Below the pieces are notes generated by a model that was given only the letters and a program-made list of their open reading frames with translations, was not told the DNA's origin and did no database searches. Position numbers and translations under genes: made by a program. A stretch of DNA of 64,000 bases from Phorcus lineatus (lineage: Eukaryota > Mollusca > Gastropoda > Trochida > Trochidae): contig OV121086.1 in assembly GCA_921293015.1 (NCBI GenBank), forward strand, positions 42,425,402 to 42,489,401, written 5' to 3'. Numbering within the stretch: position 1 is the first letter of the stretch; every line of letters begins with the position of its first letter. Shown here piece after piece: positions 155 through 33,696 of this stretch.

Positions 155-173
155 TCGACTTAGTCTTTTTCCG

Positions 174-6396: not shown

Positions 6397-8944
6397 AAGC
6401 TCGAATCTGGAGCCCAAACGAAAAATCCGACTGAAAATTTGTTTTGCTCAATCGATAGAACACATTGTAATGTACATTCGATAGAACACATTGTGATGTA
6501 CATTTGATGAAAGTTTGGTTTGGAAATATGCATTTTTTAAAAATTTATCGTGCTCGGTACAACATAATGCATATTTTCGACTTAGTCTTTTTCCGCGATT
6601 TTGGTCAAAATCGGCTATTTGTAAGTGGTTAAGCTCGAATCTGGAGCCCAAACGAAAAATCCGACTGAAAATTTGTTTTGCTCCATCGATAGAACACATT
6701 GTGATGTACATTTAAAGAAAGTTTGGTTTGGAAATATGCATTTTTAAGAAAGTTATCGTGCTCGGTACAACAATATGCATATTTTCGACTTAGTCTTTTT
6801 CCGCGATTTTGGTCAAAATCGGCTATTTGTAAGTGGTTAAGCTCGAATCTAGAGCCCAAACGAAAAATCCGACTGAAAATTTGTTTTGCTCAATCGATAG
6901 AACACATTGTGATGTACATTTGATGAAAGTTTGGTTTGGAAATATGCATTTTTAAGAAAGTTATCGTGCTCGGTACAACAATATGCATATTTTCGACTTA
7001 GTCTTTTTCCGCGATTTTGGTCAAAATCGGTTATTTGTAAGTGGTTAAGCTCGAATCTGGAGCCCAAACGAAAAATCCGACTGAAAATTTGTTTTGCTCA
7101 ATCGATAGAACACATTGTGATGTACATTTGATGAAAGTTTGGTTTGGAAATATGCATTTTTAAGAAAGTTATCGTGCTCGGTACAACATAATGCATATTT
7201 TCGACTTAGTCTTTTTCCGCGATTTTGGTCAAAATCGGCTATTTGTAAGTGGTCAAGCTCGAATCTGGAGCCCAAACGAAAAATCCGACTGAAAATTTGT
7301 TTTGCTCAATCGATAGAACACATTGTGATGTACATTTGATAGAACACATTGTGATGTACATTTGATGAAAGTTTGGTTTGGAAATATGCATTTTTAAGAA
7401 AGTTATCGTGCTCGGTACAACATAATGCATATTTTCGACTTAGTCTTTTTCCGCGATTTTGGTCAAAATCGGCTATTTGTAAGTGGTTAAGCTCGAATCT
7501 GGAGCCCAAACGAAAAATCCGACTGAAAATTTGTTTTGCTCAATCGATAGAACACATTGTGATGTACATTTGATGAAAGTTTGGTTTGGAAATATGCATT
7601 TTTAAGAAAGTTATCGTGCTCGGTACAACAATATGCATATTTTCGACTTAGTCTTTTTCCGCGATTTTGGTCAAAATCGGTTATTTGTAAGTGGTTAAGC
7701 TCGAATCTGGAGCCCAAACGAAAAATCCGACTGAAAATTTGTTTTGCTCAATCGATAGAACACATTGTAATGTACATTTGATGAAAGTTTGGTTTGGAAA
7801 TATGCATTTTTAAGAAAGTTATCGTGCTCGGTACAACATAATGCATATTTTCGACTTAGTCTTTTTCCGCGATTTTGGTCAAAATCGGTTATTTGTAAGT
7901 GGTTAAGCTCGAATCTGGAGCCCAAACGAAAAATCCGACTGAAAATTTGTTTTGCTCAATCGATAGAACACATTGTAATGTACATTTGATGAAAGTTTGG
8001 TTTGGAAATATGCATTTTTAAGAAAGTTATCGTGCTCGGTACAACATAATGCATATTTTCGACTTAGTCTTTTTCCGCGATTTTGGTCAAAATCGGCTAT
8101 TTGTAAGTGGTTAAGCTCGAATCTGGAGCCCAAACGAAAAATCCGACTGAAAATTTGTTTTGCTCAATCGATAGAACACATTGTGATGTACATTTGATGA
8201 AAGTTTGGTTTGGAAATATGCATTTTTAAGAAAGTTATCGTGCTCGGTACAACATAATGCATATTTTCGACTTAGTCTTTTTCCGCGATTTTGGTCAAAA
8301 TCGGTTATTTGTAAGTGGTTAAGCTCGAATCTGGAGCCCAAACGAAAAATCCGACTGAAAATTTGTTTTGCTCAATCGATAGAACACATTGTAATGTACA
8401 TTTGATGAAAGTTTGGTTTGGAAATATGCATTTTTAAGAAAGTTATCGTGCTCGGTACAACATAATGCATATTTTCGACTTAGTCTTTTTCCGCGATTTT
8501 GGTCAAAATCGGCTATTTGTAAGTGGTTAAGCTCGAATCTGGAGCCCAAACGAAAAATCCGACTGAAAATTTGTTTTGCTCAATCGATAGAACACATTGT
8601 GATGTACATTTGATGAAAGTTTGGTTTGGAAATATGCATTTTTAAGAAAGTTATCCTGCTCGGTACAACATAATGCATATTTTCGACTTAGTCTTTTTCC
8701 GCGATTTTGGTCAAAATCGGCTATTTGTAAGTGGTTAAGCTCGAATCTGGAGCCCAAACGAAAAATCCGACTGAAAATTTGTTTTGCTCAATCGATAGAA
8801 CACATTGTGATGTACATTTGATGAAAGTTTGGTTTGGAAATATGCATTTTTAAGAAAGTTATCCTGCTCGGTACAACATAATGCATATTTTCGACTTAGT
8901 CTTTTTCCGCGATTTTAATCAAAATCGGCTATTTGTAAGTGGTT
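6397..8944. repeat. Satellite block from type C monomer to type C monomer
   Basis: It starts with a type C 234-bp monomer and has one type T at 7255. Bases 7255-8112 correspond to 4083-4940 (offset 3,172), and 8113-8528 correspond to 5565-5980 (offset 2,548). This locus therefore lacks the extra 624-bp copy. It ends with two 'atcctgctcgg' monomers, the last having the aatc loop form, which is the usual lead-in to a type C monomer. Confidence 0.85.
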
Positions 8945-11900
8945 AAGCTCGAATCTGGAGCCCAAACGAAAAATCCGACTGAAAATTTGTTTTGCTCAAT
9001 CGATAGAACACATTGTAATGTACATTCGATAGAACACATTGTGATGTACATTTGATGAAAGTTTGGTTTGGAAATATGCATTTTTTAAAAATTTATCGTG
9101 CTCGGTACAACATAATGCATATTTTCGACTTAGTCTTTTTCCGCGATTTTGGTCAAAATCGGCTATTTGTAAGTGGTTAAGCTCGAATCTGGAGCCCAAA
9201 CGAAAAATCCGACTGAAAATTTGTTTTGCTCCATCGATAGAACACATTGTGATGTACATTTAAAGAAAGTTTGGTTTGGAAATATGCATTTTTAAGAAAG
9301 TTATCGTGCTCGGTACAACAATATGCATATTTTCGACTTAGTCTTTTTCCGCGATTTTGGTCAAAATCGGCTATTTGTAAGTGGTTAAGCTCGAATCTAG
9401 AGCCCAAACGAAAAATCCGACTGAAAATTTGTTTTGCTCCATCAATAGAACACATTGTGATGTACATTTGATGAAAGTTTGGTTTGGAAATATGCATTTT
9501 TAAGAAAGTTATCGTGCTCGGTACAACAATATGCATATTTTCGACTTAGTCTTTTTCCGCGATTTTGGTCAAAATCGGTTATTTGTAAGTGGTTAAGCTC
9601 GAATCTGGAGCCCAAACGAAAAATCTGACTGAAAATTTGTTTTGCTCAATCGATAGAACACATTGTGATGTACATTTGATGAAAGTTTGGTTTGGAAATA
9701 TGCATTTTTAAGAAAGTTATCGTGCTCGGTACAACATAATGCATATTTTCGACTTAGTCTTTTTCCGCGATTTTGGTCAAAATCGGCTATTTGTAAGTGG
9801 TCAAGCTCGAATCTGGAGCCCAAACGAAAAATCCGACTGAAAATTTGTTTTGCTCAATCGATAGAACACATTGTGATGTACATTTGATAGAACACATTGT
9901 GATGTACATTTGATGAAAGTTTGGTTTGGAAATATGCATTTTTAAGAAAGTTATCCTGCTCGGTACAACATAATGCATATTTTCGACTTAGTCTTTTTCC
10001 GCGATTTTGGTCAAAATCGGCTATTTGTAAGTGGTTAAGCTCGAATCTGGAGCCCAAACGAAAAATCCGACTGAAAATTTGTTTTGCTCAATCGATAGAA
10101 CACATTGTGATGTACATTTGATGAAAGTTTGGTTTGGAAATATGCATTTTTAAGAAAGTTATCCTGCTCGGTACAACATAATGCATATTTTCGACTTAGT
10201 CTTTTTCCGCGATTTTGGTCAAAATCGGTTATTTGTAAGTGGTTAAGCTCGAATCTGGAGCCCAAACGAAAAATCCGACTGAAAATTTGTTTTGCTCAAT
10301 CGATAGAACACATTGTGATGTACATTTGATGAAAGTTTGGTTTGGAAATATGCATTTTTAAGAAAGTTATCGTGCTCGGTACAACATAATGCATATTTTC
10401 GACTTAGTCTTTTTCCGCGATTTTGGTCAAAATCGGCTATTTGTAAGTGGTCAAGCTCGAATCTGGAGCCCAAACGAAAAATCCGACTGAAAATTTGTTT
10501 TGCTCAATCGATAGAACACATTGTGATGTACATTTGATAGAACACATTGTGATGTACATTTGATGAAAGTTTGGTTTGGAAATATGCATTTTTAAGAAAG
10601 TTATCGTGCTCGGTACAACATAATGCATATTTTCGACTTAGTCTTTTTCCGCGATTTTGGTCAAAATCGGTTATTTGTAAGTGGTTAAGCTCGAATCTGG
10701 AGCCCAAACGAAAAATCCGACTGAAAATTTGTTTTGCTCAATCGATAGAACACATTGTGATGTACATTTAAAGAAAGTTTGGTTTGGAAATATGCATTTT
10801 TAAGAAAGTTATCGTGCTCGGTACAACAATATGCATATTTTCGACTTAGTCTTTTTCCGCGATTTTGGTCAAAATCGGCTATTTGTAAGTGGTTAAGCTC
10901 GAATCTAGAGCCCAAACGAAAAATCCGACTGAAAATTTGTTTTGCTCAATCGATAGAACACATTGTGATGTACATTTGATGAAAGTTTGGTTTGGAAATA
11001 TGCATTTTTAAGAAAGTTATCGTGCTCGGTACAACAATATGCATATTTTCGACTTAGTCTTTTTCCGCGATTTTGGTCAAAATCGGTTATTTGTAAGTGG
11101 TTAAGCTCGAATCTGGAGCCCAAACGAAAAATCTGACTGAAAATTTGTTTTGCTCAATCGATAGAACACATTGTGATGTACATTTGATGAAAGTTTGGTT
11201 TGGAAATATGCATTTTTAAGAAAGTTATCGTGCTCGGTACAACATAATGCATATTTTCGACTTAGTCTTTTTCCGCGATTTTGGTCAAAATCGGCTATTT
11301 GTAAGTGGTCAAGCTCGAATCTGGAGCCCAAACGAAAAATCCGACTGAAAATTTGTTTTGCTCAATCGATAGAACACATTGTGATGTACATTTGATAGAA
11401 CACATTGTGATGTACATTTGATGAAAGTTTGGTTTGGAAATATGCATTTTTAAGAAAGTTATCCTGCTCGGTACAACATAATGCATATTTTCGACTTAGT
11501 CTTTTTCCGCGATTTTGGTCAAAATCGGCTATTTGTAAGTGGTTAAGCTCGAATCTGGAGCCCAAACGAAAAATCCGACTGAAAATTTGTTTTGCTCAAT
11601 CGATAGAACACATTGTGATGTACATTTGATGAAAGTTTGGTTTGGAAATATGCATTTTTAAGAAAGTTATCCTGCTCGGTACAACATAATGCATATTTTC
11701 GACTTAGTCTTTTTCCGCGATTTTGGTCAAAATCGGTTATTTGTAAGTGGTTAAGCTCGAATCTGGAGCCCAAACGAAAAATCCGACTGAAAATTTGTTT
11801 TGCTCAATCGATAGAACACATTGTGATGTACATTTGATGAAAGTTTGGTTTGGAAATATGCATTTTTAAGAAAGTTATCGTGCTCGGTACAACATAATGC

Positions 11901-14612
11901 ATATTTTCGACTTAGTCTTTTTCCGCGATTTTGGTCAAAATCGGCTATTTGTAAGTGGTCAAGCTCGAATCTGGAGCCCAAACGAAAAATCCGACTGAAA
12001 ATTTGTTTTGCTCAATCGATAGAACACATTGTGATGTACATTTGATAGAACACATTGTGATGTACATTTGATGAAAGTTTGGTTTGGAAATATGCATTTT
12101 TAAGAAAGTTATCGTGCTCGGTACAACATAATGCATATTTTCGACTTAGTCTTTTTCCGCGATTTTGGTCAAAATCGGTTATTTGTAAGTGGTTAAGCTC
12201 GAATCTGGAGCCCAAACGAAAAATCCGACTGAAAATTTGTTTTGCTCAATCGATAGAACACATTGTGATGTACATTTGATGAAAGTTTGGTTTGGAAATA
12301 TGCATTTTTAAGAAAGTTATCGTGCTCGGTACAACATAATGCATATTTTCGACTTAGTCTTTTTCCGCGATTTTGGTCAAAATCGGCTATTTGTAAGTGG
12401 TCAAGCTCGAATCTGGAGCCCAAACGAAAAATCCGACTGAAAATTTGTTTTGCTCAATCGATAGAACACATTGTGATGTACATTTGATAGAACACATTGT
12501 GATGTACATTTGATGAAAGTTTGGTTTGGAAATATGCATTTTTAAGAAAGTTATCGTGCTCGGTACAACATAATGCATATTTTCGACTTAGTCTTTTTCC
12601 GCGATTTTGGTCAAAATCGGCTATTTGTAAGTGGTTAAGCTCGAATCTGGAGCCCAAACGAAAAATCCGACTGAAAATTTGTTTTGCTCAATCGATAGAA
12701 CACATTGTGATGTACATTTGATGAAAGTTTGGTTTGGAAATATGCATTTTTAAGAAAGTTATCCTGCTCGGTACAACATAATGCATATTTTCGACTTAGT
12801 CTTTTTCCGCGATTTTAATCAAAATCGGCTATTTGTAAGTGGTTAAGCTCGAATCTGGAGCCCAAACGAAAAATCCGACTGAAAATTTGTTTTGCTCAAT
12901 CGATAGAACACATTGTAATGTACATTCGATAGAACACATTGTGATGTACATTTGATGAAAGTTTGGTTTGGAAATATGCATTTTTTAAAAATTTATCGTG
13001 CTCGGTACAACATAATGCATATTTTCGACTTAGTCTTTTTCCGCGATTTTGGTCAAAATCGGCTATTTGTAAGTGGTTAAGCTCGAATCTGGAGCCCAAA
13101 CGAAAAATCCGACTGAAAATTTGTTTTGCTCCATCGATAGAACACATTGTGATGTACATTTAAAGAAAGTTTGGTTTGGAAATATGCATTTTTAAGAAAG
13201 TTATCGTGCTCGGTACAACAATATGCATATTTTCGACTTAGTCTTTTTCCGCGATTTTGGTCAAAATCGGCTATTTGTAAGTGGTTAAGCTCGAATCTGG
13301 AGCCCAAACGAAAAATCTGACTGAAAATTTGTTTTGCTCAATCGATAGAACACATTGTGATGTACATTTGATGAAAGTTTGGTTTGGAAATATGCATTTT
13401 TAAGAAAGTTATCGTGCTCGGTACAACATAATGCATATTTTCGACTTAGTCTTTTTCCGCGATTTTGGTCAAAATCGGCTATTTGTAAGTGGTCAAGCTC
13501 GAATCTGGAGCCCAAACGAAAAATCCGACTGAAAATTTGTTTTGCTCAATCGATAGAACACATTGTGATGTACATTTGATAGAACACATTGTGATGTACA
13601 TTTGATGAAAGTTTGGTTTGGAAATATGCATTTTTAAGAAAGTTATCCTGCTCGGTACAACATAATGCATATTTTCGACTTAGTCTTTTTCCGCGATTTT
13701 GGTCAAAATCGGCTATTTGTAAGTGGTTAAGCTCGAATCTGGAGCCCAAACGAAAAATCCGACTGAAAATTTGTTTTGCTCAATCGATAGAACACATTGT
13801 GATGTACATTTGATGAAAGTTTGGTTTGGAAATATGCATTTTTAAGAAAGTTATCGTGCTCGGTACAACATAATGCATATTTTCGACTTAGTCTTTTTCC
13901 GCGATTTTGGTCAAAATCGGCTATTTGTAAGTGGTCAAGCTCGAATCTGGAGCCCAAACGAAAAATCCGACTGAAAATTTGTTTTGCTCAATCGATAGAA
14001 CACATTGTGATGTACATTTGATAGAACACATTGTGATGTACATTTGATGAAAGTTTGGTTTGGAAATATGCATTTTTAAGAAAGTTATCGTGCTCGGTAC
14101 AACATAATGCATATTTTCGACTTAGTCTTTTTCCGCGATTTTGGTCAAAATCGGTTATTTGTAAGTGGTTAAGCTCGAATCTGGAGCCCAAACGAAAAAT
14201 CCGACTGAAAATTTGTTTTGCTCAATCGATAGAACACATTGTGATGTACATTTGATGAAAGTTTGGTTTGGAAATATGCATTTTTAAGAAAGTTATCGTG
14301 CTCGGTACAACATAATGCATATTTTCGACTTAGTCTTTTTCCGCGATTTTGGTCAAAATCGGCTATTTGTAAGTGGTCAAGCTCGAATCTGGAGCCCAAA
14401 CGAAAAATCCGACTGAAAATTTGTTTTGCTCAATCGATAGAACACATTGTGATGTACATTTGATAGAACACATTGTGATGTACATTTGATGAAAGTTTGG
14501 TTTGGAAATATGCATTTTTAAGAAAGTTATCCTGCTCGGTACAACATAATGCATATTTTCGACTTAGTCTTTTTCCGCGATTTTAATCAAAATCGGCTAT
14601 TTGTAAGTGGTT
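8945..14612. repeat. Rearranged copies of the 4,576-bp higher-order repeat
   Basis: It contains the same ordered monomer types as the complete copies downstream, but shortened. From 10,453 the spacings of 234-bp monomers are 858, 650, 442, 442, 650, 442, 442, 234. The complete copy gives 858, 650, 442, 442, 650, 650, 442, 442. Two 208-bp monomers are therefore missing, which leaves 4,160 bp between 10,453 and 14,613. Markers present include 'tttaaag', 'atctagagccc' (9387, 10895) and 'aaatctgac' (9595, 11103, 13287). Confidence 0.88.
14379..14612 (+). repeat. Hybrid 234-bp monomer at a one-monomer deletion
   Basis: This monomer has the 26-bp duplication of the type at 18,747 but the 'atcctgctcgg' and aatc-loop end of the following monomer type (18,981). 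It is followed directly by the type C 234-bp monomer at 14,613. It is the only place where two 234-bp monomers touch. The simplest reading is an unequal exchange that removed exactly 208 bp within paired monomers. Confidence 0.8.
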
Positions 14613-17004
14613 AAGCTCGAATCTGGAGCCCAAACGAAAAATCCGACTGAAAATTTGTTTTGCTCAATCGATAGAACACATTGTAATGTACATTCGATAG
14701 AACACATTGTGATGTACATTTGATGAAAGTTTGGTTTGGAAATATGCATTTTTTAAAAATTTATCGTGCTCGGTACAACATAATGCATATTTTCGACTTA
14801 GTCTTTTTCCGCGATTTTGGTCAAAATCGGCTATTTGTAAGTGGTTAAGCTCGAATCTGGAGCCCAAACGAAAAATCCGACTGAAAATTTGTTTTGCTCA
14901 ATCGATAGAACACATTGTGATGTACATTTAAAGAAAGTTTGGTTTGGAAATATGCATTTTTAAGAAAGTTATCGTGCTCGGTACAACAATATGCATATTT
15001 TCGACTTAGTCTTTTTCCGCGATTTTGGTCAAAATCGGCTATTTGTAAGTGGTTAAGCTCGAATCTAGAGCCCAAACGAAAAATCCGACTGAAAATTTGT
15101 TTTGCTCAATCGATAGAACACATTGTGATGTACATTTGATGAAAGTTTGGTTTGGAAATATGCATTTTTAAGAAAGTTATCGTGCTCGGTACAACAATAT
15201 GCATATTTTCGACTTAGTCTTTTTCCGCGATTTTGGTCAAAATCGGTTATTTGTAAGTGGTTAAGCTCGAATCTGGAGCCCAAACGAAAAATCTGACTGA
15301 AAATTTGTTTTGCTCAATCGATAGAACACATTGTGATGTACATTTGATGAAAGTTTGGTTTGGAAATATGCATTTTTAAGAAAGTTATCGTGCTCGGTAC
15401 AACATAATGCATATTTTCGACTTAGTCTTTTTCCGCGATTTTGGTCAAAATCGGCTATTTGTAAGTGGTCAAGCTCGAATCTGGAGCCCAAACGAAAAAT
15501 CCGACTGAAAATTTGTTTTGCTCAATCGATAGAACACATTGTGATGTACATTTGATAGAACACATTGTGATGTACATTTGATGAAAGTTTGGTTTGGAAA
15601 TATGCATTTTTAAGAAAGTTATCCTGCTCGGTACAACATAATGCATATTTTCGACTTAGTCTTTTTCCGCGATTTTGGTCAAAATCGGCTATTTGTAAGT
15701 GGTTAAGCTCGAATCTGGAGCCCAAACGAAAAATCCGACTGAAAATTTGTTTTGCTCAATCGATAGAACACATTGTGATGTACATTTGATGAAAGTTTGG
15801 TTTGGAAATATGCATTTTTAAGAAAGTTATCCTGCTCGGTACAACATAATGCATATTTTCGACTTAGTCTTTTTCCGCGATTTTGGTCAAAATCGGTTAT
15901 TTGTAAGTGGTTAAGCTCGAATCTGGAGCCCAAACGAAAAATCCGACTGAAAATTTGTTTTGCTCAATCGATAGAACACATTGTGATGTACATTTGATGA
16001 AAGTTTGGTTTGGAAATATGCATTTTTAAGAAAGTTATCGTGCTCGGTACAACATAATGCATATTTTCGACTTAGTCTTTTTCCGCGATTTTGGTCAAAA
16101 TCGGCTATTTGTAAGTGGTCAAGCTCGAATCTGGAGCCCAAACGAAAAATCCGACTGAAAATTTGTTTTGCTCAATCGATAGAACACATTGTGATGTACA
16201 TTTGATAGAACACATTGTGATGTACATTTGATGAAAGTTTGGTTTGGAAATATGCATTTTTAAGAAAGTTATCGTGCTCGGTACAACATAATGCATATTT
16301 TCGACTTAGTCTTTTTCCGCGATTTTGGTCAAAATCGGTTATTTGTAAGTGGTTAAGCTCGAATCTGGAGCCCAAACGAAAAATCCGACTGAAAATTTGT
16401 TTTGCTCAATCGATAGAACACATTGTGATGTACATTTGATGAAAGTTTGGTTTGGAAATATGCATTTTTAAGAAAGTTATCGTGCTCGGTACAACATAAT
16501 GCATATTTTCGACTTAGTCTTTTTCCGCGATTTTGGTCAAAATCGGCTATTTGTAAGTGGTCAAGCTCGAATCTGGAGCCCAAACGAAAAATCCGACTGA
16601 AAATTTGTTTTGCTCAATCGATAGAACACATTGTGATGTACATTTGATAGAACACATTGTGATGTACATTTGATGAAAGTTTGGTTTGGAAATATGCATT
16701 TTTAAGAAAGTTATCGTGCTCGGTACAACATAATGCATATTTTCGACTTAGTCTTTTTCCGCGATTTTGGTCAAAATCGGCTATTTGTAAGTGGTTAAGC
16801 TCGAATCTGGAGCCCAAACGAAAAATCCGACTGAAAATTTGTTTTGCTCAATCGATAGAACACATTGTGATGTACATTTGATGAAAGTTTGGTTTGGAAA
16901 TATGCATTTTTAAGAAAGTTATCCTGCTCGGTACAACATAATGCATATTTTCGACTTAGTCTTTTTCCGCGATTTTAATCAAAATCGGCTATTTGTAAGT
17001 GGTT
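14613..17004. repeat. Higher-order repeat copy 1, half A (11 monomers, 2,392 bp)
   Basis: Monomers start at 14613 (type C, 234), 14847 (tttaaag), 15055 (atctagagccc), 15263 (aaatctgac), 15471 (234), 15705, 15913, 16121 (234), 16355, 16563 (234) and 16797 (atcctgctcgg, aatc loop). Four of the eleven have the 26-bp duplication, which accounts for 2,392 bp exactly. The same order recurs 4,576 bp later. Confidence 0.92.
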
Positions 17005-19188
17005 AAGCTCGAATCTGGAGCCCAAACGAAAAATCCGACTGAAAATTTGTTTTGCTCAATCGATAGAACACATTGTAATGTACATTCGATAGAACACATT
17101 GTGATGTACATTTGATGAAAGTTTGGTTTGGAAATATGCATTTTTTAAAAATTTATCGTGCTCGGTACAACATAATGCATATTTTCGACTTAGTCTTTTT
17201 CCGCGATTTTGGTCAAAATCGGCTATTTGTAAGTGGTTAAGCTCGAATCTGGAGCCCAAACGAAAAATCCGACTGAAAATTTGTTTTGCTCCATCGATAG
17301 AACACATTGTGATGTACATTTAAAGAAAGTTTGGTTTGGAAATATGCATTTTTAAGAAAGTTATCGTGCTCGGTACAACAATATGCATATTTTCGACTTA
17401 GTCTTTTTCCGCGATTTTGGTCAAAATCGGCTATTTGTAAGTGGTTAAGCTCGAATCTGGAGCCCAAACGAAAAATCTGACTGAAAATTTGTTTTGCTCA
17501 ATCGATAGAACACATTGTGATGTACATTTGATGAAAGTTTGGTTTGGAAATATGCATTTTTAAGAAAGTTATCGTGCTCGGTACAACATAATGCATATTT
17601 TCGACTTAGTCTTTTTCCGCGATTTTGGTCAAAATCGGCTATTTGTAAGTGGTCAAGCTCGAATCTGGAGCCCAAACGAAAAATCCGACTGAAAATTTGT
17701 TTTGCTCAATCGATAGAACACATTGTGATGTACATTTGATAGAACACATTGTGATGTACATTTGATGAAAGTTTGGTTTGGAAATATGCATTTTTAAGAA
17801 AGTTATCCTGCTCGGTACAACATAATGCATATTTTCGACTTAGTCTTTTTCCGCGATTTTGGTCAAAATCGGCTATTTGTAAGTGGTTAAGCTCGAATCT
17901 GGAGCCCAAACGAAAAATCCGACTGAAAATTTGTTTTGCTCAATCGATAGAACACATTGTGATGTACATTTGATGAAAGTTTGGTTTGGAAATATGCATT
18001 TTTAAGAAAGTTATCCTGCTCGGTACAACATAATGCATATTTTCGACTTAGTCTTTTTCCGCGATTTTGGTCAAAATCGGTTATTTGTAAGTGGTTAAGC
18101 TCGAATCTGGAGCCCAAACGAAAAATCCGACTGAAAATTTGTTTTGCTCAATCGATAGAACACATTGTAATGTACATTTGATGAAAGTTTGGTTTGGAAA
18201 TATGCATTTTTAAGAAAGTTATCGTGCTCGGTACAACATAATGCATATTTTCGACTTAGTCTTTTTCCGCGATTTTGGTCAAAATCGGCTATTTGTAAGT
18301 GGTCAAGCTCGAATCTGGAGCCCAAACGAAAAATCCGACTGAAAATTTGTTTTGCTCAATCGATAGAACACATTGTGATGTACATTTGATAGAACACATT
18401 GTGATGTACATTTGATGAAAGTTTGGTTTGGAAATATGCATTTTTAAGAAAGTTATCGTGCTCGGTACAACATAATGCATATTTTCGACTTAGTCTTTTT
18501 CCGCGATTTTGGTCAAAATCGGTTATTTGTAAGTGGTTAAGCTCGAATCTGGAGCCCAAACGAAAAATCCGACTGAAAATTTGTTTTGCTCAATCGATAG
18601 AACACATTGTGATGTACATTTGATGAAAGTTTGGTTTGGAAATATGCATTTTTAAGAAAGTTATCGTGCTCGGTACAACATAATGCATATTTTCGACTTA
18701 GTCTTTTTCCGCGATTTTGGTCAAAATCGGCTATTTGTAAGTGGTCAAGCTCGAATCTGGAGCCCAAACGAAAAATCCGACTGAAAATTTGTTTTGCTCA
18801 ATCGATAGAACACATTGTGATGTACATTTGATAGAACACATTGTGATGTACATTTGATGAAAGTTTGGTTTGGAAATATGCATTTTTAAGAAAGTTATCG
18901 TGCTCGGTACAACATAATGCATATTTTCGACTTAGTCTTTTTCCGCGATTTTGGTCAAAATCGGCTATTTGTAAGTGGTTAAGCTCGAATCTGGAGCCCA
19001 AACGAAAAATCCGACTGAAAATTTGTTTTGCTCAATCGATAGAACACATTGTGATGTACATTTGATGAAAGTTTGGTTTGGAAATATGCATTTTTAAGAA
19101 AGTTATCCTGCTCGGTACAACATAATGCATATTTTCGACTTAGTCTTTTTCCGCGATTTTAATCAAAATCGGCTATTTGTAAGTGGTT
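17005..19188. repeat. Higher-order repeat copy 1, half B (10 monomers, 2,184 bp)
   Basis: It has the same order as half A except that the 'atctagagccc' monomer is missing, and the monomer after the type C one has 'ctccatcg'. Starts are 17005 (type C, 234), 17239, 17447, 17655 (234), 17889, 18097, 18305 (234), 18539, 18747 (234) and 18981. There is one private base against copy 2: A at 18,169 (cattgtaatg). Confidence 0.92.
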
Positions 19189-21580
19189 AAGCTCGAATCT
19201 GGAGCCCAAACGAAAAATCCGACTGAAAATTTGTTTTGCTCAATCGATAGAACACATTGTAATGTACATTCGATAGAACACATTGTGATGTACATTTGAT
19301 GAAAGTTTGGTTTGGAAATATGCATTTTTTAAAAATTTATCGTGCTCGGTACAACATAATGCATATTTTCGACTTAGTCTTTTTCCGCGATTTTGGTCAA
19401 AATCGGCTATTTGTAAGTGGTTAAGCTCGAATCTGGAGCCCAAACGAAAAATCCGACTGAAAATTTGTTTTGCTCAATCGATAGAACACATTGTGATGTA
19501 CATTTAAAGAAAGTTTGGTTTGGAAATATGCATTTTTAAGAAAGTTATCGTGCTCGGTACAACAATATGCATATTTTCGACTTAGTCTTTTTCCGCGATT
19601 TTGGTCAAAATCGGCTATTTGTAAGTGGTTAAGCTCGAATCTAGAGCCCAAACGAAAAATCCGACTGAAAATTTGTTTTGCTCAATCGATAGAACACATT
19701 GTGATGTACATTTGATGAAAGTTTGGTTTGGAAATATGCATTTTTAAGAAAGTTATCGTGCTCGGTACAACAATATGCATATTTTCGACTTAGTCTTTTT
19801 CCGCGATTTTGGTCAAAATCGGTTATTTGTAAGTGGTTAAGCTCGAATCTGGAGCCCAAACGAAAAATCTGACTGAAAATTTGTTTTGCTCAATCGATAG
19901 AACACATTGTGATGTACATTTGATGAAAGTTTGGTTTGGAAATATGCATTTTTAAGAAAGTTATCGTGCTCGGTACAACATAATGCATATTTTCGACTTA
20001 GTCTTTTTCCGCGATTTTGGTCAAAATCGGCTATTTGTAAGTGGTCAAGCTCGAATCTGGAGCCCAAACGAAAAATCCGACTGAAAATTTGTTTTGCTCA
20101 ATCGATAGAACACATTGTGATGTACATTTGATAGAACACATTGTGATGTACATTTGATGAAAGTTTGGTTTGGAAATATGCATTTTTAAGAAAGTTATCC
20201 TGCTCGGTACAACATAATGCATATTTTCGACTTAGTCTTTTTCCGCGATTTTGGTCAAAATCGGCTATTTGTAAGTGGTTAAGCTCGAATCTGGAGCCCA
20301 AACGAAAAATCCGACTGAAAATTTGTTTTGCTCAATCGATAGAACACATTGTGATGTACATTTGATGAAAGTTTGGTTTGGAAATATGCATTTTTAAGAA
20401 AGTTATCCTGCTCGGTACAACATAATGCATATTTTCGACTTAGTCTTTTTCCGCGATTTTGGTCAAAATCGGTTATTTGTAAGTGGTTAAGCTCGAATCT
20501 GGAGCCCAAACGAAAAATCCGACTGAAAATTTGTTTTGCTCAATCGATAGAACACATTGTGATGTACATTTGATGAAAGTTTGGTTTGGAAATATGCATT
20601 TTTAAGAAAGTTATCGTGCTCGGTACAACATAATGCATATTTTCGACTTAGTCTTTTTCCGCGATTTTGGTCAAAATCGGCTATTTGTAAGTGGTCAAGC
20701 TCGAATCTGGAGCCCAAACGAAAAATCCGACTGAAAATTTGTTTTGCTCAATCGATAGAACACATTGTGATGTACATTTGATAGAACACATTGTGATGTA
20801 CATTTGATGAAAGTTTGGTTTGGAAATATGCATTTTTAAGAAAGTTATCGTGCTCGGTACAACATAATGCATATTTTCGACTTAGTCTTTTTCCGCGATT
20901 TTGGTCAAAATCGGTTATTTGTAAGTGGTTAAGCTCGAATCTGGAGCCCAAACGAAAAATCCGACTGAAAATTTGTTTTGCTCAATCGATAGAACACATT
21001 GTGATGTACATTTGATGAAAGTTTGGTTTGGAAATATGCATTTTTAAGAAAGTTATCGTGCTCGGTACAACATAATGCATATTTTCGACTTAGTCTTTTT
21101 CCGCGATTTTGGTCAAAATCGGCTATTTGTAAGTGGTCAAGCTCGAATCTGGAGCCCAAACGAAAAATCCGACTGAAAATTTGTTTTGCTCAATCGATAG
21201 AACACATTGTGATGTACATTTGATAGAACACATTGTGATGTACATTTGATGAAAGTTTGGTTTGGAAATATGCATTTTTAAGAAAGTTATCGTGCTCGGT
21301 ACAACATAATGCATATTTTCGACTTAGTCTTTTTCCGCGATTTTGGTCAAAATCGGCTATTTGTAAGTGGTTAAGCTCGAATCTGGAGCCCAAACGAAAA
21401 ATCCGACTGAAAATTTGTTTTGCTCAATCGATAGAACACATTGTGATGTACATTTGATGAAAGTTTGGTTTGGAAATATGCATTTTTAAGAAAGTTATCC
21501 TGCTCGGTACAACATAATGCATATTTTCGACTTAGTCTTTTTCCGCGATTTTAATCAAAATCGGCTATTTGTAAGTGGTT
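19189..21580. repeat. Higher-order repeat copy 2, half A (2,392 bp)
   Basis: It is in exact register with 14613-17004 at an offset of 4,576 bp: type C at 19189, then 234-bp monomers at 20047, 20697 and 21139. I found no difference from copy 1 by eye in this half. Such identity over more than 2 kb means a recent duplication or ongoing homogenisation. Confidence 0.92.
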
Positions 21581-23764
21581 AAGCTCGAATCTGGAGCCCA
21601 AACGAAAAATCCGACTGAAAATTTGTTTTGCTCAATCGATAGAACACATTGTAATGTACATTCGATAGAACACATTGTGATGTACATTTGATGAAAGTTT
21701 GGTTTGGAAATATGCATTTTTTAAAAATTTATCGTGCTCGGTACAACATAATGCATATTTTCGACTTAGTCTTTTTCCGCGATTTTGGTCAAAATCGGCT
21801 ATTTGTAAGTGGTTAAGCTCGAATCTGGAGCCCAAACGAAAAATCCGACTGAAAATTTGTTTTGCTCCATCGATAGAACACATTGTGATGTACATTTAAA
21901 GAAAGTTTGGTTTGGAAATATGCATTTTTAAGAAAGTTATCGTGCTCGGTACAACAATATGCATATTTTCGACTTAGTCTTTTTCCGCGATTTTGGTCAA
22001 AATCGGCTATTTGTAAGTGGTTAAGCTCGAATCTGGAGCCCAAACGAAGAATCTGACTGAAAATTTGTTTTGCTCAATCGATAGAACACATTGTGATGTA
22101 CATTTGATGAAAGTTTGGTTTGGAAATATGCATTTTTAAGAAAGTTATCGTGCTCGGTACAACATTATGCATATTTTCGACTTAGTCTTTTTCCGCGATT
22201 TTGGTCAAAATCGGCTATTTGTAAGTGGTCAAGCTCGAATCTGGAGCCCAAACGAAAAATCCGACTGAAAATTTGTTTTGCTCAATCGATAGAACACATT
22301 GTAATGTACATTTGATAGAACACATTGTGATGTACATTTGATGAAAGTTTGGTTTGGAAATATGCATTTTTAAGAAAGTTATCCTGCTCGGTACAACATA
22401 ATGCATATTTTCGACTTAGTCTTTTTCCGCGATTTTGGTCAAAATCGGCTATTTGTAAGTGGTTAAGCTCGAATCTGGAGCCCAAACGAAAAATCCGACT
22501 GAAAATTTGTTTTGCTCAATCGATAGAACACATTGTGATGTACATTTGATGAAAGTTTGGTTTGGAAATATGCATTTTTAAGAAAGTTATCCTGCTCGGT
22601 ACAACATAATGCATATTTTCGACTTAGTCTTTTTCCGCGATTTTGGTCAAAATCGGTTATTTGTAAGTGGTTAAGCTCGAATCTGGAGCCCAAACGAAAA
22701 ATCCGACTGAAAATTTGTTTTGCTCAATCGATAGAACACATTGTGATGTACATTTGATGAAAGTTTGGTTTGGAAATATGCATTTTTAAGAAAGTTATCG
22801 TGCTCGGTACAACATAATGCATATTTTCGACTTAGTCTTTTTCCGCGATTTTGGTCAAAATCGGCTATTTGTAAGTGGTCAAGCTCGAATCTGGAGCCCA
22901 AACGAAAAATCCGACTGAAAATTTGTTTTGCTCAATCGATAGAACACATTGTGATGTACATTTGATAGAACACATTGTGATGTACATTTGATGAAAGTTT
23001 GGTTTGGAAATATGCATTTTTAAGAAAGTTATCGTGCTCGGTACAACATAATGCATATTTTCGACTTAGTCTTTTTCCGCGATTTTGGTCAAAATCGGTT
23101 ATTTGTAAGTGGTTAAGCTCGAATCTGGAGCCCAAACGAAAAATCCGACTGAAAATTTGTTTTGCTCAATCGATAGAACACATTGTGATGTACATTTGAT
23201 GAAAGTTTGGTTTGGAAATATGCATTTTTAAGAAAGTTATCGTGCTCGGTACAACATAATGCATATTTTCGACTTAGTCTTTTTCCGCGATTTTGGTCAA
23301 AATCGGCTATTTGTAAGTGGTCAAGCTCGAATCTGGAGCCCAAACGAAAAATCCGACTGAAAATTTGTTTTGCTCAATCGATAGAACACATTGTGATGTA
23401 CATTTGATAGAACACATTGTGATGTACATTTGATGAAAGTTTGGTTTGGAAATATGCATTTTTAAGAAAGTTATCGTGCTCGGTACAACATAATGCATAT
23501 TTTCGACTTAGTCTTTTTCCGCGATTTTGGTCAAAATCGGCTATTTGTAAGTGGTTAAGCTCGAATCTGGAGCCCAAACGAAAAATCCGACTGAAAATTT
23601 GTTTTGCTCAATCGATAGAACACATTGTGATGTACATTTGATGAAAGTTTGGTTTGGAAATATGCATTTTTAAGAAAGTTATCCTGCTCGGTACAACATA
23701 ATGCATATTTTCGACTTAGTCTTTTTCCGCGATTTTAATCAAAATCGGCTATTTGTAAGTGGTT
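21581..23764. repeat. Higher-order repeat copy 2, half B (2,184 bp)
   Basis: It is in register with 17005-19188. Differences I found against copy 1 are G at 22,049 (cgaagaatc), T at 22,166 (cattatgc) and A at 22,303 (cattgtaatg), plus the base noted at 18,169 in copy 1. Others may have been missed. Confidence 0.92.
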
Positions 23765-24206
23765 AAGCTCGAATCTGGAGCCCAAACGAAAAATCCGACT
23801 GAAAATTTGTTTTGCTCAATCGATAGAACACATTGTAATGTACATTCGATAGAACACATTGTGATGTACATTTGATGAAAGTTTGGTTTGGAAATATGCA
23901 TTTTTAAGAAAGTTATCGTGCTCGGTACAACATAATGCATATTTTCGACTTAGTCTTTTTCCGCGATTTTGGTCAAAATCGGCTATTTGTAAGTGGTTAA
24001 GCTCGAATCTGGAGCCCAAACGAAAAATCCGACTGAAAATTTGTTTTGCTCAATCGATAGAACACATTGTGATGTACATTTGATGAAAGTTTGGTTTGGA
24101 AATATGCATTTTTAAGAAAGTTATCCTGCTCGGTACAACATAATGCATATTTTCGACTTAGTCTTTTTCCGCGATTTTAATCAAAATCGGCTATTTGTAA
24201 GTGGTT
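23765..24206. repeat. 442-bp extra segment with a hybrid type C monomer
   Basis: Monomer 23765 has the type C duplication but then the ordinary 'tttttaagaaagttatcg' form in place of the A/T-rich form. It is the only type C monomer that lacks that form. It is followed by an 'atcctgctcgg'/aatc-loop monomer (23999), and then a normal type C monomer starts at 24207. This looks like a recombinant between a type C and a type T monomer, inserted as one 234 + 208 pair at a repeat boundary. Confidence 0.8.
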
Positions 24207-26338
24207 AAGCTCGAATCTGGAGCCCAAACGAAAAATCCGACTGAAAATTTGTTTTGCTCAATCGATAGAACACATTGTAATGTACATTCGATAGAACACA
24301 TTGTGATGTACATTTGATGAAAGTTTGGTTTGGAAATATGCATTTTTTAAAAATTTATCGTGCTCGGTACAACATAATGCATATTTTCGACTTAGTCTTT
24401 TTCCGCGATTTTGGTCAAAATCGGCTATTTGTAAGTGGTTAAGCTCGAATCTGGAGCCCAAACGAAAAATCCGACTGAAAATTTGTTTTGCTCAATCGAT
24501 AGAACACATTGTGATGTACATTTAAAGAAAGTTTGGTTTGGAAATATGCATTTTTAAGAAAGTTATCGTGCTCGGTACAACAATATGCATATTTTCGACT
24601 TAGTCTTTTTCCGCGATTTTGGTCAAAATCGGCTATTTGTAAGTGGTTAAGCTCGAATCTAGAGCCCAAACGAAAAATCCGACTGAAAATTTGTTTTGCT
24701 CAATCGATAGAACACATTGTGATGTACATTTGATGAAAGTTTGGTTTGGAAATATGCATTTTTAAGAAAGTTATCGTGCTCGGTACAACAATATGCATAT
24801 TTTCGACTTAGTCTTTTTCCGCGATTTTGGTCAAAATCGGTTATTTGTAAGTGGTTAAGCTCGAATCTGGAGCCCAAACGAAAAATCTGACTGAAAATTT
24901 GTTTTGCTCAATCGATAGAACACATTGTGATGTACATTTGATGAAAGTTTGGTTTGGAAATATGCATTTTTAAGAAAGTTATCGTGCTCGGTACAACATA
25001 ATGCATATTTTCGACTTAGTCTTTTTCCGCGATTTTGGTCAAAATCGGCTATTTGTAAGTGGTCAAGCTCGAATCTGGAGCCCAAACGAAAAATCCGACT
25101 GAAAATTTGTTTTGCTCAATCGATAGAACACATTGTGATGTACATTTGATAGAACACATTGTGATGTACATTTGATGAAAGTTTGGTTTGGAAATATGCA
25201 TTTTTAAGAAAGTTATCCTGCTCGGTACAACATAATGCATATTTTCGACTTAGTCTTTTTCCGCGATTTTGGTCAAAATCGGCTATTTGTAAGTGGTTAA
25301 GCTCGAATCTGGAGCCCAAACGAAAAATCCGACTGAAAATTTGTTTTGCTCAATCGATAGAACACATTGTGATGTACATTTGATGAAAGTTTGGTTTGGA
25401 AATATGCATTTTTAAGAAAGTTATCCTGCTCGGTACAACATAATGCATATTTTCGACTTAGTCTTTTTCCGCGATTTTGGTCAAAATCGGCTATTTGTAA
25501 GTGGTTAAGCTCGAATCTGGAGCCCAAACGAAAAATCCGACTGAAAATTTGTTTTGCTCAATCGATAGAACACATTGTGATGTACATTTGATGAAAGTTT
25601 GGTTTGGAAATATGCATTTTTAAGAAAGTTATCCTGCTCGGTACAACATAATGCATATTTTCGACTTAGTCTTTTTCCGCGATTGTGGTCAAAATCGGTT
25701 ATTTGTAAATGGTTAAGCTCGAATCTGGAGCCCAAACGAAAAATCCGACTGAAAATTTGTTTTGCTCAATCGATAGAACACATTGTGATGTACATTTGAT
25801 GAAAGTTTGGTTTGGAAATATGCATTTTTAAGAAAGTTATCGTGCTCGGTACAACATAATGCATATTTTCGACTTAGTCTTTTTCCGCGATTTTGGTCAA
25901 AATCGGCTATTTGTAAGTGGTTAAGCTCGAATCTGGAGCCCAAACGAAAAATCCGACTGAAAATTTGTTTTGCTCAATCGATAGAACACATTGTGATGTA
26001 CATTTGATGAAAGTTTGGTTTGGAAATATGCATTTTTAAGAAAGTTAACCTGCTCGGTACAACATAATGCATATTTTCGACTTAGTCTTTTTCCGCGATT
26101 TTGGTCAAAATCGGTTATTTGTAAGTGGTTAAGCTCGAATCTGGAGCCCAAACGAAAAATCCGACTGAAAATTTGTTTTGCTCAATCGATAGAACACATT
26201 GTGATGTACATTTGATGAAAGTTTGGTTTGGAAATATGCATTTTTAAGAAAGTTATCCTGCTCGGTACAACATAATGCATATTTTCGACTTAGTCTTTTT
26301 CGACGATTGTGGTCAAAATCGGCTATTTGTAAGTGGTC
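24207..26338. repeat. Third, incomplete higher-order repeat copy and flank
   Basis: Monomers 24207, 24441, 24649, 24857 and 25065 follow half A in order. At 25299 the order departs: 'atcctgctcgg' monomers with 'ggctat' continue, followed by changes not seen in the full copies (gattgtggtc near 25,685, 'gtaaatggtt' near 25,706, and 'ttcgacgattgtgg' near 26,301). The block ends with a 'ggtcaag' junction into the type C monomer at 26339. Confidence 0.82.
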
Positions 26339-29300
26339 AAGCTCGAATCTGGAGCCCAAACGAAAAATCCGACTGAAAATTTGTTTTGCTCAATCGATAG
26401 AACACATTGTAATGTACATTCGATAGAACACATTGTGATGTACATTTGATGAAAGTTTGGTTTGGAAATATGCATTTTTTAAAAATTTATCGTGCTCGGT
26501 ACAACATAATGCATATTTTCGACTTAGTCTTTTTCCGCGATTTTGGTCAAAATCGGCTATTTGTAAGTGGTTAAGCTCGAATCTGGAGCCCAAACGAAAA
26601 ATCCGACTGAAAATTTGTTTTGCTCCATCGATAGAACACATTGTGATGTACATTTAAAGAAAGTTTGGTTTGGAAATATGCATTTTTAAGAAAGTTATCG
26701 TGCTCGGTACAACAATATGCATATTTTCGACTTAGTCTTTTTCCGCGATTTTGGTCAAAATCGGTTATTTGTAAGTGGTTAAGCTCGAATCTGGAGCCCA
26801 AACGAAAAATCCGACTGAAAATTTGTTTTGCTCAATCGATAGAACACATTGTGATGTACATTTGATGAAAGTTTGGTTTGGAAATATGCATTTTTTAAAA
26901 ATTTATCGTGCTCGGTACAACATAATGCATATTTTCGACTTAGTCTTTTTCCGCGATTTTGGTCAAAATCGGCTATTTGTAAGTGGTTAAGCTCGAATCT
27001 GGAGCCCAAACGAAAAGTCCGACTGAAAATTTGTTTTGCTCCATCGATAGAACACATTGTGATGTACATTTAATAAAAGTTTGGTTTGGAAATATGCATT
27101 TTTAAGAAAGTTATCGTGCTCGGTACAACAATATGCATATTTTTGACTTAGTCTTTTTCCGCGATTTTGGTCAAAATTGGTTATTTGTAAGTGGTTAAGC
27201 TCGAATCTGGAGCCCAAACGAAAAATCCGACTGAAAATTTGTTTTGCTCAATCGATAGAACACATTGTGATGTACATTTGATGAAAGTTTGGTTTGGAAA
27301 TATGCATTTTTAAGAAAGTTATCGTGCTCGGTACAGCATAATGCATATTTTCGACTTAGTCTTTTTCCGCGATTTTGGTCAAAATCGGTTATTTGTAAGT
27401 GGTTAAGCTCGAATCTGGAGCCCAAACGAAAAATCCGACTGAAAATTTGTTTTGCTCAATCGATAGAACACATTGTGATGTACATTTGATGAAAGTTTGG
27501 TTTGGAAATATGCATTTTTAAGAAAGTTATCCTGCTCGGTACAACATAATGCATATTTTCGACTTAGTCTTTTTCCGCGATTTTGGTCAAAATCGGCTAT
27601 TTGTAAGTGGTTAAGCTCGAATCTGGAGCCCAAACGAAAAATCCGACTGAAAATTTGTTTTGCTCAATCGATAGAACACATTGTGATGTACATTTGATGA
27701 AAGTTTGGTTTGGAAATATGCATTTTTAAGAAAGTTATCCTGCTCGGTACAACATAATGCATATTTTCGACTTAGTCTTTTTCCGCGATTTTAATCAAAA
27801 TCGGCTATTTGTAAGTGGTTAAGCTCGAATCTGGAGCCCAAACGAAAAATCCGACTGAAAATTTGTTTTGCTCAATCGATAGAACACATTGTAATGTACA
27901 TTCGATAGAACACATTGTGATGTACATTTGATGAAAGTTTGGTTTGGAAATATGCATTTTTTAAAAATTTATCGTGCTCGGTACAACATAATGCATATTT
28001 TCGACTTAGTCTTTTTCCGCGATTTTGGTCAAAATCGGCTATTTGTAAGTGGTTAAGCTCGAATCTGGAGCCCAAACGAAAAGTCCGACTGAAAATTTGT
28101 TTTGCTCCATCGATAGAACACATTGTGATGTACATTTAATAAAAGTTTGGTTTGGAAATATGCATTTTTAAGAAAGTTATCGTGCTCGGTACAACAATAT
28201 GCATATTTTTGACTTAGTCTTTTTCCGCGATTTTGGTCAAAATTGGTTATTTGTAAGTGGTTAAGCTCGAATCTGGAGCCCAAACGAAAAATCCGACTGA
28301 AAATTTGTTTTGCTCAATCGATAGAACACATTGTGATGTACATTTGATGAAAGTTTGGTTTGGAAATATGCATTTTTAAGAAAGTTATCGTGCTCGGTAC
28401 AACATAATGCATATTTTCGACTTAGTCTTTTTCCGCGATTTTGGTCAAAATCGGCTATTTGTAAGTGGTTAAGCTCGAATCTGGAGCCCAAACGAAAAAT
28501 CCGACTGAAAATTTGTTTTGCTCAATCGATAGAACACATTGTAATGTACATTTGATGAAAGTTTGGTTTGGAAATATGCATTTTTAAGAAAGTTATCGTG
28601 CTCGGTACAACATAATGCATATTTTCGACTTAGTCTTTTTCCGCGATTTTGGTCAAAATCGGCTCTTTGTAAGTGATTAAGCTCGAATCTGGAGCCCAAA
28701 CGAAAAATCCGACTGAAAATTTGTTTTTCTCAATCGATAGAACACATTGTGATGTACATTTGATGAAAGTTTGGTTTGGAAATATGCATTTTTTAAAAAT
28801 TTATCGTGCTCGGTACAACATAATGCATATTTTCGACTTAGTCTTTTTCCGCGATTTTGGTCAAAATCGGCTATTTGTAAGTGGTTAAGCTCGAATCTGG
28901 AGCCCAAACGAAAAATCCGACTGAAAATTTGTTTTGCTCCATCGATAGAACACATTGTGATGTACATTTAATGAAAGTTTGGTTTGGAAATATGCATTTT
29001 TAAGAAAGTTATCGTGCTCGGTACAACAATATGCATATTTTTGACTTAGTCTTTTTCCGCGATTTTGGTCAAAATTGGTTATTTGTAAGTGGTTAAGCTC
29101 GAATCTGGAGCCCAAACGAAAAATCCGACTGAAAATTTGTTTTGCTCAATCGATAGAACACATTGTAATGTACATTTGATGAAAGTTTGGTTTGGAAATA
29201 TGCATATTTAAGAAAGTTATCGTGCTCGGTACAGCATAATGCATATTTTCGACTTAGTCTTTTTCCGCGATTTTGGTCAAAATCGGCTATTTGTAAGTGG

Positions 29301-30368
29301 TTAAGCTCGAATCTAGAGCCCAAACGAAAAATCCGACTGAAAATTTGTTTTGCTCAATCGATAGAACACATTGTGATGTACATTTGATGAAAGTTTGGTT
29401 TGGAAATATGCATTTTTAAGAAAGTTATCGTGCTCGGTACAACAATATGCATATTTTCGACTTAGTCTTTTTCCGCGATTTTGGTCAAAATCGGCTATTT
29501 GTAAGTGGTTAAGCTCGAATCTAGAGCCCAAACGAAAAATCCGACTGAAAATTTGTTTTGCTCAATCGATAGAACACATTGTGATGTACATTTGATGAAA
29601 GTTTGGTTTGGAAATATGCATTTTTAAGAAAGTTATCCTGCTCGGTACAACAATATGCATATTTTCGACTTAGTCTTTTTCCGCGATTTTGGTCAAAATC
29701 GGTTATTTGTAAGTGGTTAAGCTCGAATCTGGAGCCCAAACGAAAAATCCGACTGAAAATTTGTTTTGCTCAATCGATAGAACACATTGTGATGTACATT
29801 TGATGAAAGTTTGGTTTGGAAATATGCATTTTTAAGAAAGTTAACCTGCTCGGTACAACATAATGCATATTTTCGACTTAGTCTTTTTCCGCGATTTTGG
29901 TCAAAATCGGTTATTTGTAAGTGGTTCAGCTCGAATCTGGAGCCCAAACGAAAAATCCGACTGAAAATTTGTTTTGCTCAATCGATAGAACACATTGTAA
30001 TGTACATTCGATAGAACACATTGTGATGTACATTTGATGAAAGTTTGGTTTGGAAATATGCATTTTTTAAAAATTTATCGTGCTCGGTACAACAATATGC
30101 ATATTTTCGACTTAGTCTTTTTCCGCGATTTTGGTCAAAATCGGTTATTTGTAAGTGGTTAAGCTCGAATCTGGAGCCCAAACGAAAAATCCGACTGAAA
30201 ATTTGTTTTGCTCAATCGATAGAACACATTGTGATGTACATTTGATGAAAGTTTGGTTTGGAAATATGCATTTTTTAAAAATTTATCGTGCTCGGTACAA
30301 CATAATGCATATTTTCGACTTAGTCTTTTTCCGCGATTTTGGTCAAAATCGGCTATTTGTAAGTGGTT
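26339..30368. repeat. Transition block with the last 234-bp monomers
   Basis: Type C monomers lie at 26339, 27821 and 29927 with no type T between them. Monomers at 26989 and 28055 share two changes not seen elsewhere: 'gaaaagtccgac' (G at 27,017 and 28,083) and 'tttaataaaag'. They lie 1,066 bp apart and so mark a duplication. Monomer 29927 starts 'cagctc' and joins the A/T-rich form to the palindrome form, another hybrid. No gene is present. Confidence 0.85.
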
Positions 30369-33300: not shown

Positions 33301-33696
33301 AACGAAAAATCCGACTGAAAATTTGTTTTGCTCAATCGATAGAACACATTGTGATGTACATTTCATGAAAGTTTGGTTTGGAAATATGCATTTTTTAAAA
33401 ATTTATCGTGCTCGGTACAACATAATGCATATTTTCGACTTAGTCTTTTTCCGCGATTTTGGTCAAAATCGGCTATTTGTAAGTGGTTAAGCTCGAATCT
33501 GGAGCCCAAACGAAAAATCCGACTGAAAATTTGTTTTGCTCCATCGATAGAACACATTGTGATGTACATTTAATGAAAGTTTGGTTTGGAAATATGCATT
33601 TTTAAGAAAGTTATCGTGCTCGGTACAACAATATGCATATTTTTGACTTAGTCTTTTTCCGCGATTTTGGTCAAAATTGGTTATTTGTAAGTGGTT
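30369..33696. repeat. 1,664-bp (8-monomer) repeat, two copies
   Basis: Copies are 30369-32032 and 32033-33696. Both contain two monomers with 'aatttaatttgctcc' (starts 30369, 31409 | 32033, 33073), each followed by a 'tttcatg' monomer (30577, 31617 | 32241, 33281). The copies differ in type at their fifth and eighth monomers (31201 against 32865, and 31825 against 33489), so they have been partly exchanged since the duplication. All monomers are 208 bp. Confidence 0.83.

What the first reader, a model, noticed from the sequence alone, without database searches (positions are those of the whole stretch)
14613..23764. Nested 4,576-bp higher-order repeat, two full copies nearly identical
The pattern of 208/234-bp lengths (spacings 858, 650, 442, 442, 650, 650, 442, 442) repeats exactly at 4,576 bp. 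Each copy is itself an 11-monomer half and a 10-monomer half that differ by one monomer. I found only four single-base differences in 4,576 bp (18,169; 22,049; 22,166; 22,303). This is a two-level hierarchy built on length polymorphism.
Basis: seen in the sequence. Interest (0 to 1): 0.75.

Follow-up and report, generated by a model that had tools for sequence, protein, structure and literature searches.

The report
Nested repeat in eukaryotic satellite array

Summary
Observation confirmed: 14613-19188 and 19189-23764 differ at exactly 4 of 4,576 positions, ungapped, with the 208/234-bp pattern as stated. The window is one head-to-tail 208-bp satellite (304 anchors on +, none on -). By monomer type each copy reads E Z U L M N A H A F G + E T L M N A H A F G: an 11-mer plus a 10-mer.

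Two corrections. (1) More than two copies: a shortened copy lies upstream (10453-14612; 3,042 bp of it identical to copy 1), a T-type half before it (8945-10452), and a 1,092-bp identical partial copy at 24207-25298. (2) The two levels are barely separated in age: the eight-monomer block shared by both halves differs by 1 or 3 bases between halves of one copy and by 0 or 4 between copies. The upper level rests on one lost monomer (U) and one SNP (A54C).

Best explanation: recent block duplications with smaller deletions and monomer fusions, by out-of-register exchange or conversion. Nested higher-order repeats are known in human alpha satellite. The host was not identified; centromere function was not testable. 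Interest is low.

The parts
14613..19188 (+). copy 1 of the 4,576-bp unit (21 monomers: E+ Z U L M+ N A H+ A F+ G / E+ T L M+ N A* H+ A F+ G; + marks a 234-bp monomer, * a private G73A at 18169)
19189..23764 (+). copy 2 of the 4,576-bp unit; three private bases at 22049, 22166, 22303
14613..17004 (+). 11-monomer half of copy 1 (2,392 bp); identical letter for letter to 19189-21580
17005..19188 (+). 10-monomer half of copy 1 (2,184 bp); monomer T (= Z plus A54C) stands where the 11-mer has Z U
10453..14612 (+). upstream shortened copy ('copy 0', 4,160 bp): first monomer H+ in place of E+ (by type this H+ could as well be counted to the half unit before it), then Z U L M+ N A H+ A F+ G / E+ T L M+ A H+ A F/G; N lost and F+/G fused in the second half; 10687-13728 (3,042 bp) identical to copy 1 and 3 differences from copy 2
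8945..10452 (+). T-type half E+ T U' L M+ N A of a still earlier copy; U' (9387) carries A54C and G58A; the A F+ G E+ that would follow H+ (10453) is missing
23765..24206 (+). two extra monomers: a chimera-like monomer with the 26-bp insertion of E+ but none of its 3' SNPs (F-like 3' part), followed by G
24207..25298 (+). partial third downstream copy (E+ Z U L M+), 1,092 bp identical to 14613-15704 and 19189-20280
1..64000 (+). continuous head-to-tail array of the 208-bp satellite (304 anchors; of 303 intervals between them 245 are 208 bp, 40 are 234, 9 are 186, 9 have other lengths); about 35% G+C

Best explanation
The feature is a young, local, nested higher-order repeat inside a 208-bp satellite array, made by block duplication. 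An ancestral unit of about 11 monomers (E Z/T U L M N A H A F G) was duplicated. One duplicate gained A54C and then lost monomer U, becoming the 10-mer. The 11+10 pair (21 monomers, 4,576 bp) was then duplicated at least twice in tandem. Later one upstream copy lost monomer N and had F and G fused, a 4-monomer stretch (A F G E) was lost before it, and an E/F-like chimera with an extra G was inserted after copy 2. Shown by sequence: the units, the order of types, the near-identity and the chimera-like monomers. Inferred: the order of events, and that the mechanism was out-of-register homologous exchange or conversion between sister or homologous arrays (or break-induced replication) rather than selection for the pattern. 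The host is taken to be a eukaryote (inferred from 64 kb of non-coding satellite with no match found in the bacterial, viral, phage and plasmid collections searched); whether the array is centromeric is unknown.
For: 18 of 21 monomers identical between copies and 4 differences in 4,576 bp. A further shortened copy shares 3,042 bp with copy 1 without a difference, and a partial copy shares 1,092 bp. T-type and Z-type half units alternate T Z T Z T Z T Z from 9179 to 24441, with a T-like monomer again at 26573. Of 30 singleton variant-types among the 219 monomers 0-218, 9 fit a single crossover between types present in the array, 16 carry a private variant, and 5 fit neither (no shuffled control was run for this, and one of the nine, at 18097, could equally be one point mutation). 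57 of 231 pairs of 22 common SNPs show all four combinations, as exchange within monomers would give (recurrent mutation is not excluded). A plain duplication/deletion/mutation simulation gave at least one nested 16-40-mer in 50 of 600 arrays over 15 parameter sets: 0 of 200 with mean block 4, 15 of 200 with mean block 8, 35 of 200 with mean block 15.
Against: No reads or second assembly were available, so a false duplication in the assembly cannot be excluded. In the simulation nested units are a minority outcome at every setting and absent with small blocks, so either exchange blocks are large or this is a lucky draw. In monomers 42-118 the exact-match rate at lag 21 (19 of 56) is only a little above that at lags 10 (19 of 67) and 19 (16 of 58). 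The Z/T alternation does not continue upstream: the T at 6631 is followed by the T at 9179 with no Z between. Three of the four differences lie within 255 bp (chance 0.033), so they may not be independent mutations.
Confidence: 0.85

Rival explanations
1. The near-identical copies are an assembly artefact: two haplotypes, or the same reads, laid end to end.
For: Only 4 differences in 4,576 bp; three private to copy 2 and one to copy 1, a level two haplotypes could show.
Against: A third, independently rearranged copy (10453-14612) and a partial one (24207-25298) lie alongside at the same level of identity. Another domain of the window shows its own repeat of similar kind (lag 12, 26 of 44 exact in monomers 150-205), so the pattern is not confined to one join. 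None of this is proof.
Confidence: 0.08
2. The real unit is the single 10/11-mer; the 4,576-bp alternation came about by independent losses of U in every second unit.
For: The halves are as similar to each other as the copies are, so age alone does not set the levels apart.
Against: The second halves of copies 0, 1 and 2 all carry the same monomer T with A54C and lack U, and the Z/T alternation holds over eight successive half units. Block duplication needs one loss of U; independent loss needs three in the right places.
Confidence: 0.07
3. The 208/234 alternation is kept by selection because it spaces nucleosomes or protein-binding dyads.
For: Monomer length is near a nucleosome repeat (general knowledge). 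The consensus holds short dyads (5 inverted 8-mer pairs within 40 bp, overlapping windows of longer arms counted separately; 0 of 300 base-composition shuffles reach 5), a feature reported as enriched in centromeric DNA of several taxa (passages of PMC13081366).
Against: The length pattern breaks up on both sides, and 234-bp monomers are absent from 30161 to the end of the window. The 26-bp insertion lies outside the two main dyads, though it does duplicate the palindrome ATGTACAT. The best CENP-B-box-like match in the consensus has 2 mismatches, which 110 of 500 shuffles equal or beat. No binding data.
Confidence: 0.03

Closest known systems
Local-nested higher-order repeats of human alpha satellite (HiCAT; 12 passages of PMC10053651 seen)
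   Same: Tandem amplification inside a multi-monomer unit; the paper itself notes that a nested form and a deletion form can give the same outcome.
   Different: LN-HORs as described there repeat a sub-block within a unit; here a whole unit is doubled and one half has lost a monomer. Monomers of this domain differ by about 1.7%, against 70-90% identity between monomers of one alpha-satellite unit (passage of PMC5615363). Only about 3.5 copies.
Cascading HORs (GRM2023; abstract and passages of PMC11050224 seen)
   Same: Monomer types recur within one canonical unit (here A four times, and E, L, M, N, H, F, G twice per 21-mer).
   Different: The human chromosome 15 case has 429 15-mer copies; different satellite.
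Arabidopsis CEN178 HORs as annotated by TRASH (passages of PMC10199239 seen)
   Same: HOR taken as a pair of blocks of similar monomers, without discrete monomer classes; that such HORs are mostly local is recalled, not from a call.
   Different: 178-bp monomer of a plant; no sequence comparison was made here.
Chrysolina carnifex (leaf beetle) pericentromeric satellite, 211-bp monomers with 477-bp dimers and 633-bp trimers (one passage of PMC8122249 seen)
   Same: Monomer length close to 208 bp; higher-order units, one of them of irregular length.
   Different: Sequence not compared; 2-3 monomer units only. A lead, not a match.

Membership tests
Satellite DNA | Long head-to-tail array of one non-coding unit | tested here: met
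   304 anchors on + and none on - over 64 kb; longest stop-to-stop frame 122 codons; no Rfam match in 14000-24000, the only part searched
Higher-order repeat (HOR) | Monomers at the same place in successive units are much more alike than monomers within a unit | tested here: met
   4 of 4,576 (0.09%) between copies against about 1.7% between random equal-length monomers of the domain
Higher-order repeat (HOR) | Unit repeated many times as a homogeneous array | tested here: not met
   Two full, one shortened and two partial copies in the window; beyond the window unknown
Nested / cascading HOR | Unit itself holds repeated blocks of monomer types | tested here: met
   11-mer and 10-mer halves share nine monomers in order (E and the eight-monomer block L..G)
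Nested HOR with two distinct ages | Halves of one unit more diverged than copies of the unit | tested here: not met
   Shared block: 1 and 3 differences between halves, 0 and 4 between copies; A54C and loss of U are what separates the halves
Centromeric satellite | Bound by CENH3/CENP-A; location at the centromere | not testable with these tools
   No chromatin data and no genome held for this window
CENP-B-box satellite | Conserved CENP-B box | tested here: not met
   Consensus only: best match has 2 mismatches of 9 fixed bases, equalled or beaten in 110 of 500 mononucleotide shuffles; the box consensus was typed from recall; single monomers were not scanned

The most novel reading that the evidence does not exclude
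The array turns over by large block exchanges (ten or more monomers at a time), so that doubled units with one defective half arise repeatedly: the 21-mer here, and perhaps the 12-mer at about 32-44 kb, whose partial match at lag 6 suggests two related six-monomer halves. On that reading doubled units would be a signature of the exchange mechanism in this species.
Probability: 0.2. Interest if true: 0.4.

Novelty: new member of a known kind. Interest (0 to 1): 0.2.

Why it matters
It is a clean small example of how higher-order repeats start: copies so young that single events (a lost monomer, two monomer fusions, four point differences) can be read off. It does not change what is known about satellite evolution. 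Its use is as a worked case and as a caution that two visible levels need not mean two separate ages.

Tried and rejected
Identifying the host: no whole genome is held for the window. One 858-bp stretch (14613-15470) had no match at E 1e-5 in phage or plasmid records. One 24-base pattern from the monomer had no exact match in viral contigs or genome contigs. Twelve k-mers of the monomer were in none of the held papers. Four keyword searches for a 208-bp satellite returned 0, 1, 3 and 132 papers (of the 132 only the 20 listed were seen, as titles and abstract starts); none of those listed was recognisable as this satellite. It may still be known in papers, supplements or databases not held here.

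Coding potential: rejected; longest stop-to-stop frame 122 codons. RNA families: none in 14000-24000. CENP-B box: chance level.

Origin of the 208-bp monomer from eight 26-bp units (208 = 8 x 26, insertion = 26): not supported; self-match of the consensus at lag 26 is 0.29, below several unrelated lags. The 26-bp insertion is a tandem duplication (both units identical in 26 of 40 copies); in the 208-bp monomer the unit begins with GAT and is followed by GAT, which suggests slippage (inference).

A 10.4-bp AA/TT/TA period was looked at (power 168 against a mean of 46, but only the sixth strongest of the spectrum); no claim is made.

Full report
WHAT WAS CLAIMED AND WHETHER IT HOLDS. A direct ungapped comparison gives exactly four (17473/22049, 17590/22166, 17727/22303, 18169/22745). 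The monomer starts reproduce the stated spacings. In 2,000 shuffles of the order of monomers 42-116, exact matches at lag 21 never ran longer than 4 monomers (observed 13). Equal lengths at lag 21 never ran longer than 15 (observed 23), but over all lags from 5 to 34 the best shuffle reached 22, so the length pattern alone is the weaker evidence. Random equal-length pairs would predict about 78 differences instead of 4 (all).

THE ARRAY. The whole window is satellite: 304 anchors, all on the + strand. The 303 anchor-to-anchor intervals are 245 of 208 bp, 40 of 234, 9 of 186 and 9 others, one of them 358 bp. The 40 monomers of 234 bp all lie in 1-30160 and carry a 26-bp tandem duplication in three alleles (26, 13 and 1 copies). 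The 304 stretches, the last one cut by the window end, fall into 107 distinct sequences. Monomers 0-144 differ by a median of 4 alignment positions, monomers 225-272 (from 47796) by 20. Other domains have their own best period: lag 12 in monomers 150-205 (26 of 44 exact) and lag 13 in monomers 270-303 (7 of 21).

ANATOMY OF THE UNIT. With one letter per exact monomer type (+ for 234 bp), the 11-mer half is E+ Z U L M+ N A H+ A F+ G and the 10-mer half E+ T L M+ N A H+ A F+ G, apart from three monomers with private changes in the 10-mer halves of copies 1 and 2. T equals Z plus A54C, and U is absent from the 10-mer. Halves 14613-17004 and 19189-21580 are identical. The eight-monomer block L..G (1,742 bp) was compared in five half units (10 pairs; the shortened second half of copy 0 was left out because it lacks monomers). 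It is identical in the three 11-mer halves; the 10-mer half of copy 1 has one private change and that of copy 2 three. The halves are therefore no older, by divergence, than the copies. The hierarchy rests on U and A54C.

BEYOND THE REPORTED COORDINATES. Upstream, 10687-13728 equals 14847-17888 over 3,042 bp, and differs at 3 positions from copy 2. That copy is shortened: N is missing, and F+ and G are fused into one 234-bp monomer at 14379 with the insertion of F and the 3' SNPs of G. Before it, 8945-10452 is a T-type half that still has U, as U' with A54C and G58A. Downstream, 23765-24206 is an E/F-like chimera plus G, then 24207-25298 is identical to the start of both copies. Z and T halves alternate over eight half units, 9179 to 24441; further upstream the next T (6631) breaks the alternation. 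The match at lag 4,576 itself extends from 14462 to 19329. By exact monomers, lag 21 (19 of 56) leads lags 10 (19 of 67) and 19 (16 of 58) only modestly in monomers 42-118, as expected when both levels are young.

MECHANISM. The sequence shows duplicated blocks, missing blocks that are whole monomers, and chimera-like monomers. Of 30 singleton variant-types in monomers 0-218, 9 fit a single crossover between existing types, 16 have private variants and 5 fit neither by the rule used. That rule demanded a variant on both sides of the breakpoint, so the E/F-like monomer at 23765 and the monomer at 6189 fall under 'neither'. The test had no shuffled control, and with few SNPs per monomer it is lenient. 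57 of 231 common SNP pairs show all four combinations. Out-of-register exchange or conversion accounts for these; recurrent mutation is not excluded for single cases. A simulation with random block duplication, deletion and mutation found a tandem 16-40-mer in 13, 67 and 121 of 200 arrays at mean block 4, 8 and 15, and a nested one in 0, 15 and 35 of 200. Where the distinct fraction came near the observed 107 of 304 (0.35), the nested counts were 3 of 40 (block 8, 0.37), 7 of 40 (block 15, 0.28) and 4 of 40 (block 15, 0.40); with block 4, 0 of 40 at 0.24 and 0 of 40 at 0.50. Selection is not needed, but large exchange blocks are favoured. The detector thresholds were chosen by me after seeing the data.

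FUNCTION. Nothing here shows function. The consensus has short dyads (5 inverted 8-mer pairs, 0 of 300 mononucleotide shuffles), the window has no open frame over 122 codons, and the consensus has no CENP-B box above chance. A centromeric role is possible but untested.

COMPARISON WITH KNOWN SYSTEMS. Nested and cascading HORs are described for human alpha satellite (passages of PMC10053651; abstract and passages of PMC11050224). HOR formation by simultaneous amplification of neighbouring monomers, and the roles of unequal exchange, conversion and break-induced replication, are described in reviews (passages of PMC5615363; PMC8122249). The present case is a member of that kind in an unidentified host. 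I recognised no paper on this satellite in the listings, which is not proof that none exists.

VERDICT. Real, accurately read, and ordinary in kind.

Noticed in passing
32241-43887: A second higher-order repeat made of 208-bp monomers (one of 207 bp): 26 of 44 monomers identical at lag 12 (2,496 bp), 13 of 50 at lag 6, so it may also be a doubled unit.
   Followed up: partly
46592-56664: A more diverged domain with 186-, 195-, 196- and 197-bp monomers among 208-bp ones (median 20 differences among monomers 225-272, about 47.8-57.7 kb) set inside the younger array; one 186-bp type occurs six times identically.
   Followed up: no
57081-64000: A third local higher-order pattern with period 13 monomers (7 of 21 exact), and a 160-bp truncated monomer at 62489.
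   Followed up: no
22049-22303: Three of the four differences fall within 255 bp (chance 0.033). A27G (22049) occurs in no other monomer, A144T without T143A (22166) in one other (number 226); the G>A at 22303 lies in the first 26-bp unit, where 13 other 234-bp monomers also have A. The fourth difference (18169, G73A) is a variant seen in 26 other monomers. Part of this may be conversion rather than mutation.
   Followed up: partly
14740-14829: Short perfect dyads in the monomer: CGATTTTG-GT-CAAAATCG, and AAATATGCATT/AATGCATATTT with 31 bp between the arms.
   Followed up: partly
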